Assembly: GCA_938046705.1 (NCBI GenBank)
Contig: CALIWP010000164.1
Coordinates: 1 to 8,452, forward strand
DNA: 8,452 nt
From: an uncultured Campylobacter sp.
Lineage (GTDB): Bacteria; Campylobacterota; Campylobacteria; Campylobacterales; Campylobacteraceae
Direction: 5' to 3'
Under the pieces are notes generated by a model. It saw only the letters and a list, made by a program, of their open reading frames with translations, did not search any database and was not told the origin of the DNA. A program made the translations under genes and the position numbers. Of this stretch, positions 1 to 8,452 are shown piece by piece; position 1 is the first letter of the stretch, and the number at the start of each line of letters is the position of its first letter.

Positions 1-1252
1 CATCTAGGATTATGACGCCCTCGCCGCCTCCGGTGATCTTGCTTTCGCTCGCGATAAATGCCAGCCTTAAGCGGTTTAGCTCGCCCGAGCTTAGATTTTT
101 TAGCGCCGTCTCGTTTAGGCTCAAATTTACCTCGTCCCTACCGGCGGAGTCTAGGGTTTTGCTATTTATCTTTAATGAAATCTCGCTCATATAAAGCTCT
201 TTTAGAAACGAATTTATGAGCGACTCAAGCTCTTTTAAATTTGCCGCGCGAGCTTGGCTGATTTTATCGGCCAGCGCGTTTACCGCGGTTTCGTTTTGTT
301 TAAATTTACGCTCCAGCTCGCTCTTTTCAAAGCTTATATTTTCGTATCTTGCTAGCTCGGCTTTGCGCGTTTTTAGCGTCTGCAAAGCCTCCTCCTCGCC
401 GCCGTAGCGACGCACGAGTGAGTTTATCGCCTCAATGCGGTCTAGCACGCCCTCGATATCCACGTCTTCTAGCTCGTCCATGTTTAAATTTTCGCGCGCT
501 ATTCGCAGCTCGTTCATCGCCTCTTCAAAAAAGCCGCTATCGACGTCGCTGATGTTTAGCGCGTCTACTACGGGTTGCTCGAAATTAAAAATTTGCTCCG
601 CCCTATTCCACGCTTCTAAAATTTTATCCTTTTTACTCAGGCGCTTTTTTAGCTCCATTAGCTCGTCAAATTCGCCGATTTTCGGGCTCACGCTTTCTAT
701 TTTATTGATTTCAAAGGAGGCAAATTCCTTTAGCTCCTCCACTCTTTTTTCTTCGTCGATTATTTTTTTCAGCTCGCGAGAAATTTGGCTAAATTCGTCA
801 AATTTGAGCCTAAATTCGCTCAAAATTTCGTTAAATTTAGCGTCTTTTTTCGTCTGCAAGCTATCTAGCAAATTTAAAAATCTCTCGTTTTCAAATTCGT
901 TTATTTCCTTTGCGGATAGGTATTTTACGTGCTCTTTGGCGATGCTGGCTAGATTTTTTTTAGAAACGGCTTGCGAGTTTATAAAGTAGCGCGTCGTTTT
1001 GTCGCGAAAAAGCTTAAAGGTATTTATCTCCTCGCTCTCAAGGCCAAATTCCTCAAGGTCAAAATTATGCGAGACGTCGGCCTCGATCAGCTTCGCTTCG
1101 CTATCCTTTAGCCCCAAAACCGCCATTATCGAGCCCATCAGGACCGATTTGCCAGCACCGCTCACGCCCGTAAATACGCTAAGTCCGCGCCCGAAATTTA
1201 ACTCGACGTTTTCAAAACTCAAATTTTGCTTTATCAAAATCCGCTCAATCAT
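1..1252 (-). CDS. recN: DNA repair protein RecN (3' end cut off by window edge)
   Basis: RecN is a cytoplasmic SMC-like ATPase that acts early in recombinational repair of double-strand breaks. Translating the minus strand from the ATG at 1252 gives 417 open residues to the window edge. Walker A is at residues 29-36 (GVSGAGKS). A long charged, coiled-coil-like stretch rich in E, K and L covers about 120-345. The ABC signature LSSGE is at 387-391, followed by NRLRLAFIA, and Walker B begins as VIILD at 413-417 with the next codon starting in G, as expected for the catalytic Glu. The remaining part (rest of Walker B, D-loop, H-loop) lies outside the window; bacterial RecN is about 500-560 residues. 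The start overlaps the nadK stop by 8 bases and has no clear ribosome binding site of its own, so translational coupling to nadK is likely. The signature has Ser where LSGGE is more usual; SG remains. The assignment is firm from motif order plus the nadK neighbour. Confidence 0.93.
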
Positions 1253-2138
1253 TATAACCCCAATGCAGCTTTTCTTTTAAAATTTGAAAATAATCTCTCC
1301 CGACGTGGCGGATTAGCCGCGCCGTGTTCGCGCTTAGCGTCATGCTCACGCTCTCAAGCTCGCTCATTTTATACCTGTCCTGCCCGTCGATCACCAGCAC
1401 CGCCGCGCTTGCGGTTTTAAATTTGATCTCAAATCCGCGCGGAAGCACGACCGGACGCTGCGTGAGCGAGTGCGAACAAACGGGCGTAACCAAAAACACC
1501 TCGCTCAAAGGATAGGTTATCGCTCCGCCAGCGCTCATGTTGTATCCGGTTGATCCCACCGGCGTAGAGACGATGACGCCGTCGCCAAAATACGCGTTAA
1601 AGTATTTTTCGTTCCAAAAGGCCTCCACGTGCGTCATGGAACCTACCTTTTCGCCCACGATCACCGCGTCGTTAAATGCGATCTTGTGCAAAATTTCCCC
1701 GCTTTTTTTGTGCAAAAAAACGTCAAGCATAAAAGGGGTCTCGACCTCAAATTTGCCCTCGAAAAACTCGGCGAAAAATTTCTCGCATTCATTCATCGTG
1801 ATATCTGTTAAAAATCCCAGCCTGCCCGCGTGTATGCCTAGCACGAAGGGCGAAATCTCGGCCGCGTTTCTGCAAAGCGAGATGATCGTGCCGTCGCCTC
1901 CGAGCGAGATCAAAAAATCGCACTCTGTAGCCAGCTCGCGCACCTCAAATCCTTGCAAATTTGAGCCCTCTTTTAAATTTAGATGTTTAGCGAGCGCGTT
2001 TTCAAACAAAATTTGAACGCCGTACCTGGCTAAAATTTCGCGTAAAATTTGTGCGTTTTTTACCAAATTTCCATTGATTTTTGCGACTAGGCCGACTTTT
2101 TTTACCTTAGCCGGAAGTAATAAATTCTCTTTTTTCAT
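1245..2138 (-). CDS. nadK: NAD(+) kinase (ATP-NAD kinase)
   Basis: Phosphorylates NAD+ to NADP+ with ATP, the only route to NADP(H); cytoplasmic. From the ATG at 2138 the protein has 297 residues, normal for the family (C. jejuni NadK is close to 286 and, from memory, aligns along its whole length). Diagnostic motifs: GGDGT at 80-84 ([14 protein letters not shown]), [12 protein letters not shown] at 101-112, the FNDAV NAD-binding segment at 155-159, and the glycine-rich block [15 protein letters not shown] at 186-200, followed by TPVCSHSL. The C-terminus [14 protein letters not shown] is typical of the Campylobacter protein. The reading frame stays open upstream to a TTG at 2186, but the extra 16 residues do not look like family sequence and would need a transcript starting much further up. 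The start at 2138 has no Shine-Dalgarno and sits directly behind a -10 box. First gene of a nadK-recN unit, divergent from aspS. Confidence 0.94.
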
Positions 2139-2145
2139 AGAGCGG

Positions 2146-2153
2146 ATTTTATC
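2146..2153 (-). promoter_or_regulatory. Probable -10 box of nadK-recN
   Basis: On the minus strand GATAAAAT fits the Campylobacter sigma-70 -10 pattern gnTAnaAT. It ends only 7 bases before the nadK ATG at 2138, so transcription would begin at or within a base or two of the start codon. The bases between (CCGCTCT) contain no Shine-Dalgarno. This suggests a leaderless mRNA; it is an inference from spacing only. Confidence 0.45.
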
Positions 2154-2192
2154 ACATTTTGTTTTAAAAAAGCTGGGAAAAAGCAAATTTCT

Positions 2193-2200
2193 AGTATAAT
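2193..2200 (+). promoter_or_regulatory. -10 box of aspS promoter
   Basis: AGTATAAT with a perfect TATAAT at 2195-2200, preceded by A/T-tract sequence as is usual for epsilonproteobacterial sigma-70 promoters, which lack a strong -35. A start point near 2207 leaves a leader of about 25 bases before the aspS ATG. The upstream ATG at 2199 overlaps this box and so cannot serve as the aspS start. Confidence 0.65.
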
Positions 2201-2220
2201 GGGCGCGTTAAAAACAGCAA

Positions 2221-2226
2221 AAGGAG
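2221..2226 (+). promoter_or_regulatory. Ribosome binding site of aspS
   Basis: AAGGAG, followed by five bases (TGAAA) and then the ATG at 2232. It fixes the aspS start at 2232 rather than at the in-frame ATG at 2199. Confidence 0.8.
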
Positions 2227-2231
2227 TGAAA

Positions 2232-3983
2232 ATGCGTAGCCATTACTGCACTGATTTAAGCAGTGCCGACATAGGCAAAGAAGTTACGCTTTGCGGTTGG
2301 GTAAATACCTACCGCGACCACGGCGGCGTTATATTTTTGGACCTGCGCGATCGCACGGGACTGATCCAGATCGTCTGCGATCCGGCAGACAGCAAGAGCT
2401 CTCACGAGGCAGCATCGCACGTTCGCGACGAGTACGTGCTAAGGATAAAAGGCAAAGTCCGCGCTCGCGGCGAAGGCCTAGTAAATCCACGCCTAAAAAC
2501 GGGCGAGATCGAAGTAATCGCTAGCGAAGTGATAGTAGAAAACCCGAGCGAGACGCTACCTTTCGTCATCGGCGACGAGAGCGTAAACGAGGACATCAGG
2601 CTAAAATACAGATTTTTGGACCTTAGAAACGAGAAACTTCAAAATATCTTTAAAATGCGCTCAAAAGCGGCGATCGCAGCTAGAAACAGCCTAGATAAAA
2701 TGGGCTTTATCGAGTTTGAAACGCCGATTTTAACGCGCGCAACGCCTGAAGGCGCAAGAGACTATCTAGTGCCTAGCCGCGTATATCCGGGCCAGTTTTA
2801 CGCCCTGCCGCAAAGCCCGCAGCTTTTCAAACAGCTTTTGATGTGTTCCGGCTTTGATAAATATTTTCAGATCGCAAAATGCTTCCGCGACGAGGACTTG
2901 CGCGCCGATAGACAGCCTGAATTTACGCAGATAGATATCGAGATGAGCTTCATCGAGCAAGAAGACATCCTAAATATGGCTGAAAATATGCTAAAAGACG
3001 TCTTTGCCGCATGCGGATACGATATCCAAATCCCTTTTCGCCGCATGAGCTACAAAGAGGCTACCGAGAGCTACGGCAGCGACAAGCCCGATCTGCGCTA
3101 CGATCTAAAGATGATCGACGTTATCGACATTTTCGCGCGCTCTAGCAATGAAATATTTAGTAAAATCGCAACCGAACCTAAGAAAAACCGCATCAAGGCG
3201 CTAAAAGTGCCAAACGGCGATAATATCTTTAGCAAGCGCGAGATGAATAGGTTTGAGGAATTTGTCCGCAAATTCGGCGCTCAAGGCCTTGGCTACTTCC
3301 AGATGAAAGAGGACGGTCTAAAAGGACCGCTTTGTAAATTTTTCGAACAAAGCGACCTTGACGAGATCGTAGCTCGCTGCGAGCTAAAAGTCGGCGACGT
3401 CGTATTTTTCGGCGCCGGCAAGAAAAAAGTCGTACTTGACTACATGGGACGATTTAGGATTTTCCTCGCCGAGCAAATGGGCATCATCGACCAAAACAAA
3501 ATGGAGTTTTTGTGGGTGCTTGACTTCCCGATGTTTGAGCAAAACGACGACGGTAGCTACTCAGCTATGCACCATCCGTTTACCATGCCTAAAAACATCG
3601 ACGAGCCCGATCTCGAGGACATCCTATCGGTCGCTCACGACGTCGTGCTTAACGGCTATGAACTTGGCGGCGGTAGCGTGAGAATCCATAAAAACGACAT
3701 TCAGCAAAAGGTATTTAAGCTACTTGGTATCGACGAAGCTGAGCAACGCGAGAAATTTGGCTTCTTGCTCGACGCGTTAAGCTTTGGCGCACCTCCGCAC
3801 GGCGGTATCGCGATCGGCTTTGATAGGCTAAATATGCTAGTAAATAAAACCAGCTCGATCCGCGACGTTATCGCCTTCCCTAAAACTCAGCGCGCCCAGT
3901 GCCCGTTAACAAAAGCGCCGAGCGAAGCTAGCGCGGAGCAGTTAAGGGAGCTAGGGTTAAGGCTGCGAGAAAAAGAAAAATAA
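2232..3983 (+). CDS. aspS: Aspartyl-tRNA synthetase, probably non-discriminating (Asp/Asn)
   Basis: Class IIb aminoacyl-tRNA synthetase: activates aspartate with ATP and loads it on tRNA-Asp. 583 residues, the usual bacterial length, with an N-terminal OB-fold anticodon-binding domain (about 1-105), a catalytic core from about 120, and the bacterial GAD-type insert in the middle (about 290-420). Visible motifs: [16 protein letters not shown] at 168-183, [12 protein letters not shown] at 190-201, motif 2 [14 protein letters not shown] at 218-231, and motif 3 GIAIGFDRL at 525-533. H30 (in RDHGG) and G82 (in RGEGLVN) match the pair reported for non-discriminating AspRS of Pseudomonas aeruginosa; E. 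coli has Leu and Lys in the corresponding places. It therefore probably also makes Asp-tRNA-Asn for GatCAB amidation, as known for Helicobacter and relatives. The start is set by AAGGAG at 2221. Followed by a palindromic element rather than a classic terminator. Confidence 0.96.
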
Positions 3984-3985
3984 GT

Positions 3986-4110
3986 GTAGAAGCGTCGTCT
4001 CGCTGCGCTATACGTCGTTGGTTTTAAAATTTTACGCTCCGCAGGCTACACGCCTAGCGCACGCTTAAATTTTAAAACCGCCTTGTCTAGCTTGGCGATA
4101 CTTCCGCTAC
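3986..4110. repeat. Imperfect palindromic intergenic element (REP/MITE-like)
   Basis: The outer ends are GTAG (3986-3989) and CTAC (4107-4110). Inside are perfect 13-bp arms GGTTTTAAAATTT (4020-4032) and AAATTTTAAAACC (4067-4079). The centre carries a small hairpin AGGC-TACAC-GCCT (4043-4055). Flanks between outer ends and inner arms are of similar length (34 and 31 bases) and partly complementary (for example GAAG/CTTC). There is no T-run after it, so it is not a classic terminator, although it may end or stabilise the aspS transcript. It contains no recognisable gene. Whether it is repeated elsewhere in the genome cannot be seen here. Confidence 0.5.
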
Positions 4111-4268
4111 AAAATTTATTGAATTTTATTTTTTATTTTAAAGAAAAGGCGAAGTATCTTGCGATGAATTTAAATGTTGCGAAGAAATTTTCGACCGAAG
4201 ATAGAACATATAGTTCATCGAGGGAGGAAATTTCTAGCCCATTTAAAGACGCGTAAGAGAAGCCGAAA
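4111..4268. other. rdgB upstream region, no assignable gene
   Basis: Together with the palindrome at 3986-4110 this fills the 295-base gap between aspS and rdgB. It starts with an A/T-rich run (4111-4147) that could hold the rdgB promoter, but no -10 box stands out. A short open frame of 30 codons (4164-4256) looks unusually protein-like but lacks a well-placed ribosome binding site. A strong purine tract AGGGAGG at 4221-4227 has no ATG, GTG or TTG at a usable distance. An 8-base inverted pair GATACTTC (4097-4104) / GAAGTATC (4151-4158) links this stretch to the palindrome. Confidence 0.4.
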
Positions 4269-4273
4269 AAGGA
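4269..4273 (+). promoter_or_regulatory. Ribosome binding site of rdgB
   Basis: AAGGA, then five bases (AAAAT), then TTG at 4279. It decides for the TTG start of rdgB over the upstream in-frame ATG at 4174. Confidence 0.75.
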
Positions 4274-4278
4274 AAAAT

Positions 4279-4923
4279 TTGAAAATAGTTTTAGCAACAT
4301 CCAACGCCGACAAAGTGCGCGAAATAAAAGATTTTTTAAAAGATTACGAAATTTACGCACTGCGCGAAATTTGCGAGCCTTTTGAGATCGTCGAAGACGG
4401 CGCGACTTTCGCCGCAAACGCGCTAATCAAAGCTCGCGCCGTGCAGGCAAAACTGCGTGAGCTAAATTTGGCGGACGAGTTTATCGCGCTAAGCGACGAT
4501 AGCGGCATCAGCGTGGAGGCTCTTGGCGGTAGGCCCGGGATTTACTCGGCGAGATTTAGCGATATGAACGAGCGCGGGCAGATAACGGGCAAAAGCGCGA
4601 CCGACGCTAGCAACCGCGCAAAGCTGATCTCGGAGCTAAAAGCGCTAAATTTGATTAGTTCGCCCGCGTTTTACACCGCTTGTATCGCGGTTAGCTCAAA
4701 TTTGGGCGATTTTACGGCGCACGGCTTTATGCACGGCACGGCAATCGACGAGGAGCGCGGCAGCAACGGCTTTGGCTACGATAGCCTCTTTATACCGCGC
4801 GGCTTTACGCAGACTCTGGGCGAGCTAGACGACGCTATAAAGCTAAAAATCTCTCACCGCTCAAAGGGACTTGAGCTCATAAAGTACGTGTTAAAGAGCC
4901 TTGAGAGGAAATTTGGGCGCTAA
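4279..4923 (+). CDS. rdgB: RdgB/HAM1 non-canonical purine NTP pyrophosphatase
   Basis: Hydrolyses dITP/ITP and (d)XTP to monophosphate plus pyrophosphate, keeping deaminated purines out of DNA and RNA; cytoplasmic. 214 residues from a TTG start, close to the family norm of about 200. The N-terminus MKIVLATSNADKVREIKDFL is the family hallmark (substrate-binding SN at 8-9), with TFAANALIKARA at 43-54, SDDSG at 72-76 (metal/catalytic Asp), GIYSARFS at 87-94, the base-recognition loop GSNGFGYDSLFIP at 161-173, and SHR at 192-194. The frame is open upstream to an ATG at 4174, but those 35 extra residues are Arg/Lys-rich, unlike the family, and that ATG has no ribosome binding site. Next to the catalytic region, about 95-110 (NERGQITGKSATDASN) is longer than I recall in C. 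jejuni. Downstream is a separately promoted phosphatase gene. Confidence 0.93.
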   Translation: MKIVLATSNADKVREIKDFLKDYEIYALREICEPFEIVEDGATFAANALIKARAVQAKLRELNLADEFIALSDDSGISVEALGGRPGIYSARFSDMNERGQITGKSATDASNRAKLISELKALNLISSPAFYTACIAVSSNLGDFTAHGFMHGTAIDEERGSNGFGYDSLFIPRGFTQTLGELDDAIKLKISHRSKGLELIKYVLKSLERKFGR

Positions 4924-4955
4924 ATTTAGGGCGCGAAAGAAAAAGCAAATTTGCG

Positions 4956-4980
4956 CGGCAAAACTGAGCTAAATTTGCCG
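4956..4980 (+). terminator. Hairpin after rdgB, weak terminator candidate
   Basis: CGGCAAA (4956-4962) pairs with TTTGCCG (4974-4980) across an 11-base loop, just beyond the rdgB stop. No T-run follows (TCCCTTAA), so it may be a Rho-dependent or stabilising hairpin, or chance in a sequence full of AAATTTG words. A perfect small palindrome GCAAATTTGC lies just before it (4945-4954). Confidence 0.3.
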
Positions 4981-4997
4981 TCCCTTAACGCTAGCGC

Positions 4998-5005
4998 GGT
5001 ATAAT
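4998..5005 (+). promoter_or_regulatory. -10 box of the HAD phosphatase gene
   Basis: GGTATAAT fits gnTAnaAT exactly, in an otherwise GC-rich setting, about 27 bases before the ATG at 5033. It is flanked by GCGCG (4994-4998) and CGCGC (5006-5010), forming a 5-bp dyad centred on the box; this may be chance or a repressor site. Confidence 0.6.
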
Positions 5006-5032
5006 CGCGCAAATTTAAAATTTGAGACGAAG

Positions 5033-5620
5033 ATGAATCTGGTTTTATTCGACTTTGACGGGACGATCACGCGCGATGATTCGCTGCTGGAGTTTATCGC
5101 CTACGTCGTGGGATTTAAGAAATTTTTTCGGGGTATTTTTTGGCTTTCGCCCGTTTTGATCGGATATAAGCTAAAAATTTGCAGCAACAACTACGCTCGT
5201 AGGCGGCTGATGACGTACTTTTTTGCTGGTATGAGCGCGGATAAATTTGCTCAAATTTGCAAAAAATACTCAAACACGCACATCGAAGATATCGTGAAAT
5301 TTTCCGCGATGGCAAAGATCGCCGAGTATAAAGCAAACGGCGACAAGGTCGTGATCGTGACGGCGTCGCTCGAGGACTGGCTAGCTCCGTGGTGCAGGGC
5401 GCAGGGCATCGAGCTACTAGGCACTCGTATCAAGAAAAAGGGCGGCGTGATAACGGGCGAGATAGACGGCGCCAACTGCTACGGCGCGGAGAAGGTACGC
5501 CGCGTGCGCGAGGCGTATGACACGGACGCCTTTGAGCGCGTGATCGCATACGGCGACAGTAGGGGCGACAAGGAGATGCTGGAGTTTGCCGACGAGGCGC
5601 ATTATAGGGCGTTTGAGTGA
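5033..5620 (+). CDS. HAD superfamily subfamily IB phosphatase
   Basis: Small soluble-looking haloacid-dehalogenase-type hydrolase of 195 residues, predicted to remove phosphate from a small molecule or lipid phosphate through an aspartyl-phosphate. Motif I is DFDGT at 7-11 (nucleophile D7, acid D9), motif II T110 in VIVTAS, motif III K154 in GAEKV, and motif IV GDSRGDKEML at 174-183. The cap after motif I holds a hydrophobic, aromatic stretch (about 31-46, FFRGIFWLSPVLIGYK). That is reminiscent of HAD-IB enzymes such as phosphatidylglycerophosphatase PgpC and of SerB relatives. The substrate cannot be read from sequence: SerB is less likely because of length and cap, and PgpC-like is a guess. 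The ribosome binding site is weak (GACGAAG directly before the ATG). It has its own promoter and ends at a strong bidirectional terminator, so it is probably monocistronic. Confidence 0.85.
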   Translation: MNLVLFDFDGTITRDDSLLEFIAYVVGFKKFFRGIFWLSPVLIGYKLKICSNNYARRRLMTYFFAGMSADKFAQICKKYSNTHIEDIVKFSAMAKIAEYKANGDKVVIVTASLEDWLAPWCRAQGIELLGTRIKKKGGVITGEIDGANCYGAEKVRRVREAYDTDAFERVIAYGDSRGDKEMLEFADEAHYRAFE

Positions 5621-5627
5621 GTAAGGG

Positions 5628-5658
5628 AAAAGCCAAGACAAAATGGATCTTGGCTTTT
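5628..5658. terminator. Bidirectional Rho-independent terminator
   Basis: A perfect 11-bp stem AAAAGCCAAGA (5628-5638) / TCTTGGCTTTT (5648-5658) with a 9-base loop, one further T on the right (5659), and A-runs on the left that become T-runs on the other strand. It lies between the convergent HAD gene (stop 5618-5620) and the OLD-type gene (stop 5664-5666) and should end both transcripts. Confidence 0.88.
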
Positions 5659-5663
5659 TGTAG

Positions 5664-7286
5664 TTAAAATGTCGATAGGTAGTCGAATAGTTCAAAGAAT
5701 TTATTTTTTGTTTCTTTGTCTATTTGGATTTTGTCTTGCTCGACTTCATTTTTAAATTTGCTTGACATATCGCTTGATTTTGCGTCCATTTGAAATTTAT
5801 CTCTTAGCTCGGTGCTAAAAAAGTCTTCCATTTCTTTAAAATTTGGATACTTTTCTTTAAATTGTTTGTTGTTCAGTATCGCTATAAATTTATCGTCGTT
5901 TAGCTCCACCATAGCTTGTCCTGCCTTATCGCCATCTACTAAAAGTAACGCTCTGCCGTCTTTTGCCGTTCTGGCTAGTGTTTTTAGTTCATTTGCTATT
6001 TTTTCTTGAGTAGGCGTAGCAACTGTATTTCTACTATTTTTAGTTTTATTATCCGCCTTGCCAAGTCCGCTTATCGGTAAAAACAGTAACTTCTCCTCGC
6101 TGTTTCGCTCTTTTTCGTATAGAAAATTCATAGCTGTTAAGTAATTATAATCGGTTATCCCCTCGACGAAAATAAGCTTATCATTATATCCTACCAGACT
6201 AAGATATCCTGTGCCGAGACTTCTTTTTATTTCAGCTAAGGTGTCAGCTTCATGATCTGGCATGATAAAAAAATCATTTATGATCGTGGAGCCTTTGTCG
6301 CCGGATTTTACTATCTTTATCTCATCAAGATGACGAATATCTAAAATATGATTTGAGTGAGTAGAAACGATAAAGGTTATACCGCGTTTTTGTCCAAATT
6401 CTTTTAAAAATTTACGAATATCTTTTTGAGCCGGTATGCTTAGATGATTTTCCACTTCGTCTATCAGGACTATATCGCTATATCCTACTTTGTATTGGTA
6501 TAAAAAGTTAAAAAATAGATTAAAGAATTTTTTAAATCCGACGCTTTGCTCGCTTAGGCTAATGGTTTCATTGTTTTTTTCAATACAAAAAGAGATGCTT
6601 TGGGTTTCCAGTTTTATCTCAAAGCCATAAACACCACTATCTGATTTGGAATAATAAAGCTCATTAAAGCGTACATTTATAGTATTTTTTAAGATTTTAT
6701 TTATCTCCTTTTCTGCCGTATTGTAAAAACTAGTGTCTTTGTCTTTTGATCTTTCGCAAGCTTTTTGTAGTTTTGATATATCAAATTTTATGGCATTAAA
6801 CAATGCTATAAAAAACTTATTTTTCAATAACTGATCGGGTGTTGTTTTTAGATTTTCGTTTTTTATTTCATGCTCTTTGTAAAATACGATTTTTGGCACT
6901 ATTGGATAACGCCACAATAGTTCATCAGCCAATGCTTTTATGTCTATAAATTTTGGAAGTTCCGGCTTTTGATTGTTGTAGTAATAAGCTTGTTTATTGT
7001 ATTCCCATAATTCAGTCAAAATTTCTCGTAGCTTATCATAATATCTTTCAAATTTATTGTATTCCCGGCGAAAGATCGCGCTACTTATATCCTTTGAAAG
7101 TTCGTCAAAAATTTTTTTATCGTTTTGTCTATATCTATTATTTTCTTTATAGTTTTCAATATACCAATCCGTAAGTTTTTTAAATTCACTTTTTATCTTA
7201 GTTAGGGTTTCAAACCATGGATAACTAGAACTCCATGTTGCTATATTTTCGCTGTTTAGCCAAATTTTAAACTCATATTTTTGCAA
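5664..7286 (-). pseudogene. OLD-family TOPRIM ATPase, 5'-truncated (no Walker A)
   Basis: OLD-type proteins join an ABC-like ATPase to a TOPRIM nuclease and often act in phage defence (OLD of phage P2, GajA of Gabija). The 540 residues here keep most of the ATPase: a signature-like LSEQSVGFKKF at 244-254, Walker B IVLIDEVE at 272-279 (D276, E277), and the H-loop STHSNH with H310. They also keep a TOPRIM domain: FVEGITD at 373-379 (E375), SGLGK at 406-410, and LLLVDGDKAG at 447-456 (D451, D453). The N-terminal ATPase lobe with the P-loop GxxxxGKS, expected about 100 residues further upstream, is absent. At that point the sequence becomes hsdM. The first usable codon is a TTG at 7286 inside hsdM, without a ribosome binding site, and no ATG follows until residue 342. 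Expression could only come from coupling to hsdM, which it overlaps by 31 bases. ATP hydrolysis is not expected. AT-richer than the housekeeping genes to its left; probably acquired. Class and partner are unknown. Confidence 0.75.
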
Positions 7287-8215
7287 ATTTTCAATATTCT
7301 TATCATCAGTGCTAAAAATAACAGTTCTGTCTTTTTTGTTTTAGTTATTTTTAAAATATCATCAGCAACTGTCTCTGCATCTAACGAACCTTTAAACGGT
7401 GGATTTGCAAGAACTAAAGTATATTTTTCCTTATCTGTATTTAATTTTGATAGTGAGTCTTTATAATCTATATTAGGATTTTCTATATCATGTAACATCA
7501 TATTCATAGTACCTATTCTAAGCATAGTTGTATCCATATCATTTCCGTAAAACATATCATTCTGATAATGCTTTTTTAATTCAGGGGAATTAAATATTTC
7601 TTCATGATTCTTTTGTAAATATTCACCTGCTCCTACTAAAAATCCTGATGTTCCACAAGCCGGATCAATTATTATATCAGTAGGTAATGGTTTAACAAGC
7701 TTTACCATCATATCTATAATATGTCTTGGTGTTCTAAATTGACCATTTGTTCCAGATGTTGAGAGCTTTGACAGTAAATATTCATAAAGATTTCCTTTTA
7801 TGTCTCCTTCCAACTCTAAATTATTAATTCCTGTAACTATTTTTTCAAGCATTTGAGGAGTAGGAATTTGAAAAATAGCATCTTTCATATATCTTGAAAA
7901 TGATGAGCTATTATCTTCATTTAAATTTTTTATAAATGGAAAAACTTCATTTACTATTGTGTCATACATTTCTTGTGCTTCAAATTCTTTAAAATTGCTC
8001 CATCTTAAATTTTGCTGGTTTTCATTAAAGATTATTTTAGGTTCTATTCCTAAAAGATTTGCATCCATTTCTTCTCTTATTTGTTTATCATCTAATGATT
8101 TAATAAATATAAGATAAGTAAACTGTTCTATTACAGATAGTGGATTAGTTATTCCTCCAGTCCAAAATGTTTCCCAAATCTTATCTACTTTGTTTCTCAA
8201 TTCTCCTGTAATCAT
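7256..8215 (-). CDS. hsdM: Type I restriction-modification methyltransferase HsdM, 3'-truncated
   Basis: HsdM is the adenine-N6 methyltransferase subunit of type I restriction-modification; with HsdS it methylates the target, and with HsdR it restricts foreign DNA. The N-terminus MITGELRNKVDKIWETFWTG and FTYLIFIKSLDD (32-43) mark the HsdM_N helical domain (about 5-130). The methyltransferase domain has GQFRTPRHI at 158-166, the SAM motif DPACGTSGFLVGAG at 184-197, and catalytic NPPF at 271-274. Homology continues through TKKTELLFLALMIRILK (about 293-309) and then stops: the last ten codons come from the neighbouring OLD-type sequence in another frame. The usual 490-520 residues are cut to 319, losing the C-terminal part of the methyltransferase domain and the helical tail that contacts HsdS. 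No hsdS or hsdR is in the window. Activity is unlikely. Composition is far more AT-rich than the rest, pointing to a low-GC donor. Confidence 0.85.
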   Translation of the reverse strand: MITGELRNKVDKIWETFWTGGITNPLSVIEQFTYLIFIKSLDDKQIREEMDANLLGIEPKIIFNENQQNLRWSNFKEFEAQEMYDTIVNEVFPFIKNLNEDNSSSFSRYMKDAIFQIPTPQMLEKIVTGINNLELEGDIKGNLYEYLLSKLSTSGTNGQFRTPRHIIDMMVKLVKPLPTDIIIDPACGTSGFLVGAGEYLQKNHEEIFNSPELKKHYQNDMFYGNDMDTTMLRIGTMNMMLHDIENPNIDYKDSLSKLNTDKEKYTLVLANPPFKGSLDAETVADDILKITKTKKTELLFLALMIRILKICKNMSLKFG

Positions 8216-8224
8216 TTCTCAATT

Positions 8225-8261
8225 GTATGATAATATAGAAATAACTATATAAATATCATAC
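8225..8261 (-). repeat. Imperfect hairpin between ribosome binding site and hsdM start
   Basis: In the mRNA sense GTATGATATTTATATAG (8261-8245) pairs with CTATATTATCATAC (8238-8225) around the loop TTATTT, with a three-base bulge. It lies exactly between AAAGGAGT (8269-8262) and the last ten bases before the hsdM ATG (8215). The left arm also contains ATG ATA TTT ATA TAG, a four-codon mini-ORF starting at 8259. It may be an operator palindrome or an mRNA structure controlling hsdM translation. Confidence 0.55.
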
Positions 8262-8269
8262 ACTCCTTT
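8262..8269 (-). promoter_or_regulatory. Strong Shine-Dalgarno upstream of hsdM
   Basis: AAAGGAGT on the minus strand is the best ribosome binding site near hsdM but is 46 bases from its ATG in linear distance. The sequence next to the ATG (TTGAGAA) is only weakly Shine-Dalgarno-like. If the intervening 37-base hairpin folds, the gap shrinks to about 10 bases. Confidence 0.45.
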
Positions 8270-8312
8270 CCTTTTCATTGGTTATCTGATTAATTTTAGA
8301 TTTATAATGATT

Positions 8313-8321
8313 ATTATATCA
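8313..8321 (-). promoter_or_regulatory. Extended -10 promoter of hsdM
   Basis: TGATATAAT on the minus strand combines an extended TGn with a perfect TATAAT (8318-8313), about 45 bases upstream of the AAAGGAGT. No clear -35 was seen. The region is so AT-rich that TATAAT-like words are expected by chance. Confidence 0.4.
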
Positions 8322-8375
8322 TATATGTAAAAATTATTTTACTGTTTATACCAATTATTGTGAGAATTTCATAAA

Positions 8376-8440
8376 AAAAGTTGGACAGAAATCCAAACAG
8401 AAAAATATAATTCTGAATTGTATAATTTAGTCCAACTTTT
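8376..8440. repeat. Inverted repeat with AAAAGTTGGAC arms, IS-end or MITE-like
   Basis: AAAAGTTGGAC (8376-8386) and GTCCAACTTTT (8430-8440) are perfect 11-bp arms around 43 bases, inside which CAGAA (8398-8402) and TTCTG (8411-8415) form a nested hairpin. Runs of A before and T after continue the symmetry imperfectly. AAAGTTGGACA resembles the inner part of IS3-family IS150-group terminal repeats (from memory), oriented as two ends facing each other with no transposase between. A large terminator hairpin of a gene beyond the edge is the alternative. Confidence 0.5.
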
Positions 8441-8452
8441 GTATATATTTAT

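What the first reader, a model, noticed from the sequence alone, without database searches (positions are those of the whole stretch)
7250..7330. Two defence genes broken at one junction: hsdM runs into a headless OLD-type ATPase
Reading leftward, HsdM family sequence holds through LLFLALMIRILK and then loses homology at about 7283-7295. The next bases are the middle of an OLD/TOPRIM ATPase gene in a different frame, missing its start and Walker A. Composition changes at the same spot: the Campylobacter word AAATTTG appears at the boundary and to its left, while the hsdM side is much more AT-rich. Neither gene is complete, so this is a recombination scar (insertion of a foreign hsdM fragment into an OLD gene, or a deletion fusing two systems) or an assembly chimera.
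Basis: partly seen in the sequence, partly recalled or inferred. Interest (0 to 1): 0.75.

Follow-up and report, generated by a model that had tools for sequence, protein, structure and literature searches.

The report
Chimeric contig joining two bacteria
Two broken defence genes meet here most likely because a metagenome assembler glued a Campylobacter gene to a gene of an unrelated bacterium at a short word that both seem to share, so the fusion is probably not real biology.

Summary
The junction is really in the sequence. An hsdM (type I methyltransferase) frame runs leftward to about 7288, where the middle of an OLD-type ATPase gene takes over in another frame. Both genes are partial: hsdM keeps 309 of 483 residues; OLD lacks about 229 N-terminal residues including Walker A. 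Close intact relatives of both exist (OLD 773 aa, 91% identical; hsdM 483 aa, 99%). Their homologies overlap instead of abutting: bases 7288-7307 spell the right protein in both frames (MIRILK for hsdM, DDKNIEN for OLD). So both parents appear to carry the same word of at least 20 bases at the join, about the smallest k-mer of common short-read assemblers (recalled). Each fused protein is a one-member, one-contig cluster in a database of 5.8 billion, and that contig is this window. The left side is an uncultured Campylobacter; the 7 of 120 listed hsdM relatives that bear an organism name are Bacillota. The likeliest reading is an assembly chimera (about 0.87). A genuine fusion at a short homology (about 0.12) is not excluded, because neither reads nor parental DNA could be examined. 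The claimed local composition step is absent (29% against 28% G+C).

The parts
7288..7307 (-). Junction word of 20 bases that fits both parent genes
   Evidence: In the hsdM frame it spells M-I-R-I-L-K plus the first base of the next codon (Lys in the closest relatives); in the OLD frame it spells D-D-K-N-I-E-(N). Both match the intact relatives.
7289..8215 (-). 5' part of an hsdM gene (type I restriction-modification methyltransferase), residues 1-309 of about 483; HsdM_N and the N-terminal half of the N6_Mtase domain
   Evidence: PF12161 3.6e-15 and PF02384 1.1e-33, the latter to profile position 174 of 311; 99% identity to P0123, 483 aa.
5664..7307 (-). 3' part of an OLD-type ATPase gene, lacking about 229 N-terminal residues with Walker A; the listed ORF starts at a TTG at 7286
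   Evidence: 91% identity over all 540 residues to P0002-P0004, 773 aa; tblastn alignments of the 773-777 aa relatives begin at 7310-7316; PF13304 4.9e-11.
8216..8452 (.). A+T-rich DNA upstream of hsdM up to the contig end (G+C 0.198); taken to belong to the hsdM side
   Evidence: the 8 plasmid matches to 5640-8452 all lie within about 7286-8218, and phages gave none.
1..5640 (.). Campylobacter chromosome: recN (cut by the contig end), NAD kinase, aspS, a frame of RdgB/HAM1 type (by eye, recalled), HAD phosphatase
   Evidence: AspS 92% to named Campylobacter sp. and 99% to two metagenome proteins.

Best explanation
The window is a whole 8452-base metagenome contig made of two organisms. Up to about 7307 it is the chromosome of an uncultured Campylobacter, ending inside an OLD-type ATPase gene. 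From about 7288 rightward it is part of the hsdM gene of another bacterium, probably a Bacillota. An assembler most likely walked from one genome into the other through a word of at least 20 bases that both genes contain by chance. Shown: both halves, their intact relatives, the overlap of the two homologies at the protein level, and that the fused proteins are singletons in the database searched. Inferred: that both parents have this word at the DNA level, that an assembler and not a cell made the join, and that hsdM comes from a Bacillota.
For: (1) Overlap instead of abutment: P0122, P0123 and P0125 align at 100% to 7289, and 773-777 aa OLD relatives align to 7310-7316, so 7288-7307 is correct in both genes. 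DDKNIEN is identical in 16 of 20 OLD hits with ENLQKYEFKIWL. Of 119 HsdM hits, the 59 with ELLFLALM all go on to GGR; none reads ILKICKN as the window does. (2) The fused proteins P0001 and P0121 are each 1 member on 1 contig of 8452 bases; intact relatives recur (P0004 on 18 contigs, P0123 with 448 member sequences). (3) Different sources: AspS is Campylobacter; the 7 of 120 listed HsdM proteins with an organism name are Anaerosalibacter (3), Clostridiisalibacter, Peptoniphilaceae, Tissierella and Crassaminicella, 73-77% identical; of the 80 genome loci kept (of 581 relatives) none is titled Campylobacter, most are Bacillota by title, 72% identity or less. (4) Chance words are plentiful: matches of the OLD piece to 1.13 Mb of other DNA fall about 0.3-fold per base, which extrapolates to some 200 shared 20-mers between two 2-Mb genomes. 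(5) Shared k-mers are a described cause of chimeric contigs (PMC7299287, passages seen).
Against: No reads, coverage or mate pairs could be examined, nor the DNA of either intact parent, so the shared word rests on protein identity in two frames. Recombination at a short homology would leave the same signature. A more distant hsdM group (29 of 59) reads ILKIGG, which fits the window two bases further (to 7286), so the exact edge is uncertain. G+C is nearly equal on both sides. The review cited speaks of related species and sequencing errors, and a simulation study found chimeras in part mainly between close relatives (PMC3901335), while the join here would be across phyla. A library or PCR chimera is not separated from an assembler chimera; the k used for this contig is unknown.
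Confidence: 0.87

Rival explanations
1. A real fusion in the Campylobacter cell: a foreign hsdM fragment, taken up from outside, recombined with the OLD gene at a short stretch of shared sequence and broke both genes.
For: A 20-base shared word could also guide illegitimate recombination; the OLD family looks mosaic, with its central part exchanged between forms in related Campylobacter, so the gene seems to recombine.
Against: The fused proteins are one-contig singletons; hsdM is 99% identical to copies on other contigs, which would need a very recent transfer; no listed repeat has an arm on the junction itself (one inverted pair of 21 bases, 86%, has an arm at 7342-7362 and the other at 8227-8247), and no further long frame lies between the two genes.
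Confidence: 0.12
2. The headless 540-residue protein is a normal short form of the OLD family, standing next to an hsdM gene.
For: One headless relative, P0019 (557 aa, 175 member sequences), begins near the same residue.
Against: 19 of 20 hits with ENLQKYEFKIWL have the P-loop, among them P0025, which by eye is almost identical to P0019; the hsdM here is itself cut inside its catalytic domain.
Confidence: 0.01

Closest known systems
Chimeric (inter-genome) contigs of short-read metagenome assembly
   Same: Two sequences of apparently different genomes joined inside genes at a short shared word; unique junction
   Different: The decisive features, coverage break and absent spanning pairs, could not be examined here
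Class 1 OLD nucleases (e.g. Thermus scotoductus OLD, 6p74)
   Same: Intact relatives have an N-terminal ABC-type ATPase with Walker A, a long central part, and a C-terminal part with conserved E and DxD residues; no helicase gene downstream in the window
   Different: About 770 residues against 512 in the 6p74 chain; the window copy lacks Walker A; the best PADLOC models are AriA and AbiLi before GajA
HsdM of type I restriction-modification systems
   Same: HsdM_N and N6_Mtase domains, 99% identical to complete 483 aa HsdM
   Different: Cut after residue 309; hsdS and hsdR not in the window

Membership tests
Assembly chimera | The two sides come from different organisms | tested here: inconclusive
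   Left: AspS of Campylobacter, OLD relatives named uncultured Campylobacter. Right: the 7 of 120 listed with an organism name are Bacillota, but the host of this hsdM was not identified, and its DNA could be foreign in any host.
Assembly chimera | A short word common to both parents lies exactly at the join | tested here: met
   20 bases, 7288-7307, correct in both frames; shown at protein level, parental DNA not available.
Assembly chimera | The junction is not found in independent contigs | tested here: met
   P0001 and P0121: 1 member, 1 contig each; depends on how that database clusters, and other collections were not searched for the junction DNA.
Assembly chimera | No read pair spans the junction; coverage changes there | not testable with these tools
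   No reads held.
OLD family nuclease | N-terminal ATPase with Walker A | tested here: not met
   Absent from the window copy; GENNxGKS present in 19 of 20 hits with ENLQKYEFKIWL.
OLD family nuclease | C-terminal Toprim nuclease domain | tested here: inconclusive
   E608, D684 and D686 are invariant in 38 aligned proteins, chosen by me from the 120 listed; precomputed PF01751 only in P0016 of 120 listed; Pfam finds none in P0004; the model of P0004 (pLDDT 80, pTM 0.68) matches T. scotoductus OLD at Foldseek rank 4, E 3e-9, TMq 0.24; a fifth or more of the VIA rows span residues 1-619 only, so the C-terminal part was barely tested. NCBIfam's only hit for the window ORF is PtuA, far below its cut-off.
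Class 1 OLD | No UvrD-like helicase gene immediately downstream | tested here: met
   The downstream neighbour is a convergent HAD phosphatase gene, 5033-5620.
HsdM, type I RM | HsdM_N plus complete N6_Mtase domain | tested here: not met
   HsdM_N matched to 133 of 135, N6_Mtase only to profile position 174 of 311.
HsdM, type I RM | Neighbouring hsdS and hsdR | not testable with these tools
   The contig ends 237 bases beyond the hsdM start.

The most novel reading that the evidence does not exclude
A genuine, very recent fusion in an uncultured Campylobacter, made at a 20-base homology: hsdM DNA from a Bacillota replaced the head of an OLD nuclease gene, so that the nuclease half without Walker A is now read from the hsdM transcript, its TTG start (7286) overlapping the end of the hsdM frame (7256).
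Probability: 0.05. Interest if true: 0.4.

Novelty: not a real feature. Interest (0 to 1): 0.07.

Why it matters
It shows how a striking 'two defence systems broken at one junction' can arise from assembly alone. It also suggests a quick check that needs no reads: align intact relatives of both halves and see whether their homologies overlap by about one assembler k-mer. If the fusion were real, it would be a cross-phylum gene disruption at a short homology.

Tried and rejected
Own-genome search was impossible: no genome is held. The first genome-contig scan with the OLD ORF gave 19 pattern matches and no relative; the second, with hsdM P0123, kept 80 loci of 581 relatives, 72% identity or less, so the hsdM host was not found. 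Viral contigs: three distant hsdM relatives, 64% identity or less, and no OLD relative. Plasmids: for OLD only two weak Streptomyces matches; for hsdM 4 records at 60-80% and 3101 below 60%. Phages: no DNA match to 5640-8452. The 1-5640 part found no Campylobacter among the 20 plasmid records listed of 53, only aspS matches where a feature was named. The 20-base word occurs in 4 viral stretches, none with a tblastn match to either protein, so it is not specific. In the related hsdM genes of 83 loci the best match to the word is 17 of 20, so the DNA of the true parent remains unseen. An earlier regular-expression attempt at the same extraction recovered only 1 site and was replaced by the alignment. 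PDB sequence search with P0004: no hit. Promoter and terminator scan of 8180-8452: 8 promoter-like sites against 3.1 in shuffles, no terminator; nothing useful; the junction itself was not scanned for terminators. Repeats in 7200-8452: none with an arm on the junction.

Full report
What is there. Window 1-5640 is ordinary Campylobacter chromosome: recN cut by the contig end, NAD kinase, aspS and a HAD phosphatase. AspS is 99% identical to two proteins known only from metagenome assemblies (P0241, P0242) and 92% to named Campylobacter sp. RM9328 and RM9344, so the host is an uncultured Campylobacter. Then follow, on the minus strand, an OLD-type ATPase frame (5664-7286, 540 aa from a TTG) and an hsdM frame (7256-8215). 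The database entry for the window's own protein gives its contig length as 8452, the window length, so the window is a whole contig.

The two genes are both partial. Of 505 OLD-type relatives, 120 were listed (the window's own included); the 21 of 773-777 aa nearest the top cover all 540 residues at 83-91% identity. The closest complete hsdM relatives have 483 aa and 99% identity over 97% of the query, that is 309 residues. The N6_Mtase profile is matched only to position 174 of 311 in the window copy but to 307 of 311 in P0123.

The junction. I aligned the 119 listed relatives of each protein (the window's own copies left out) to window 6901-7600; 31 alignments for OLD and 119 for hsdM passed E 1e-5, and 30 of each were printed. 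The eight closest HsdM relatives, 97-100% identical here, run to 7289; more distant ones of 87%, which have an isoleucine next, run to 7286. OLD relatives of 773-777 aa start at 7310-7316. In the hsdM frame the window reads LMIRILK and then ICKN; of the 59 relatives (of 119) with the ELLFLALM motif, 13 read MIRILKKGGR, 29 read LRILKIGGR, and all 59 read GGR. In the OLD frame it reads FSTDDKNIENLQKYEF, where 16 of 20 relatives read (D/N)SDDKNIENLQKYEF, 3 have DDNN and 1 DNKN. The bases 7288-7307 are therefore right for both genes. If the join were a random break, the two homologies would meet at a point or leave a gap. A shared word of at least 20 bases is what one expects if something matched the two sequences there.

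Who matched them? A short-read assembler starting from k-mers near 21 bases (recalled for MEGAHIT and metaSPAdes) would do so. By chance alone such words are common: the OLD piece of the window against 80 genome loci of other bacteria, 1.13 Mb with their hsdM genes included, gave 13, 3, 1, 0 and 0 matches of 16, 17, 18, 19 and 20 bases in about 3.7e9 position pairs. Extrapolated at 0.3 per base this is about 200 shared 20-mers between two genomes of 2 Mb (the extrapolation is mine). A review of metagenome assembly says that graphs of closely related species are often linked by shared k-mers, and that this can also come from sequencing errors, and yields chimeric contigs (PMC7299287, passages seen). 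A simulation study reports chimeric contigs at all taxonomic levels; in one passage it finds most at species to family level, in another at class to phylum level (PMC3901335, passages seen). Recombination in a cell at a short homology would look the same in the sequence; what speaks against it is that the fused proteins are singletons while intact forms recur.

Source of the right side. Among the 120 listed hsdM proteins 7 bear an organism name, all Bacillota (genera assigned from memory); none is Campylobacter; the others are unnamed. In the scan of 84,980 species genomes the best relatives are at 72%; of the 80 kept, most are Bacillota by title, with a few others such as Desulfamplus and Methanomethylovorans. 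In the plasmid collection the best DNA match is a Fusobacterium vincentii record at 69%. The host is thus an unsampled bacterium or strain, probably a Bacillota. G+C does not separate the two sides locally (29.2% against 28.1%), although third-position G+C does (29.4% against 15.9%).

Conclusion. Reads would settle it.

Noticed in passing
window 5664-7286 and proteins P0002-P0047: The Campylobacter OLD-type family looks mosaic. Against P0002, the five 643-645 aa forms compared are 92-97% identical in residues 1-40, 10-52% in 81-400, and 75-100% in 481-760 apart from one block at 55% (P0047). Residues 361-520 of the window copy are 97-100% identical to the 644 aa form P0028 and 97% to two of nine 773-777 aa forms, lower to the other seven.
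   Followed up: partly
protein P0131 (hsdM relative, contig 1027): Its C-terminal end KIGRAHV looks like translated Illumina adapter (adapter recalled), a sign that some contigs carrying this hsdM hold library artefacts.
   Followed up: no
protein P0130 (hsdM relative, 310 aa, contig 2655): Loses HsdM homology eight residues from its end (QCKKFTLV), a few residues before the site where the window does; perhaps another chimera or a frameshift.
   Followed up: no
protein P0019 (557 aa, 175 member sequences): A headless OLD-type protein starting near the junction residue; by eye its sibling P0025 has the head.
   Followed up: partly
window 8376-8440: AAAAGTTGGAC and GTCCAACTTTT, 11 bases each, form a spaced inverted repeat near the contig end, perhaps a terminator or element end on the hsdM side; seen by eye, below the 12-base limit and not reported by the terminator scan.
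   Followed up: no
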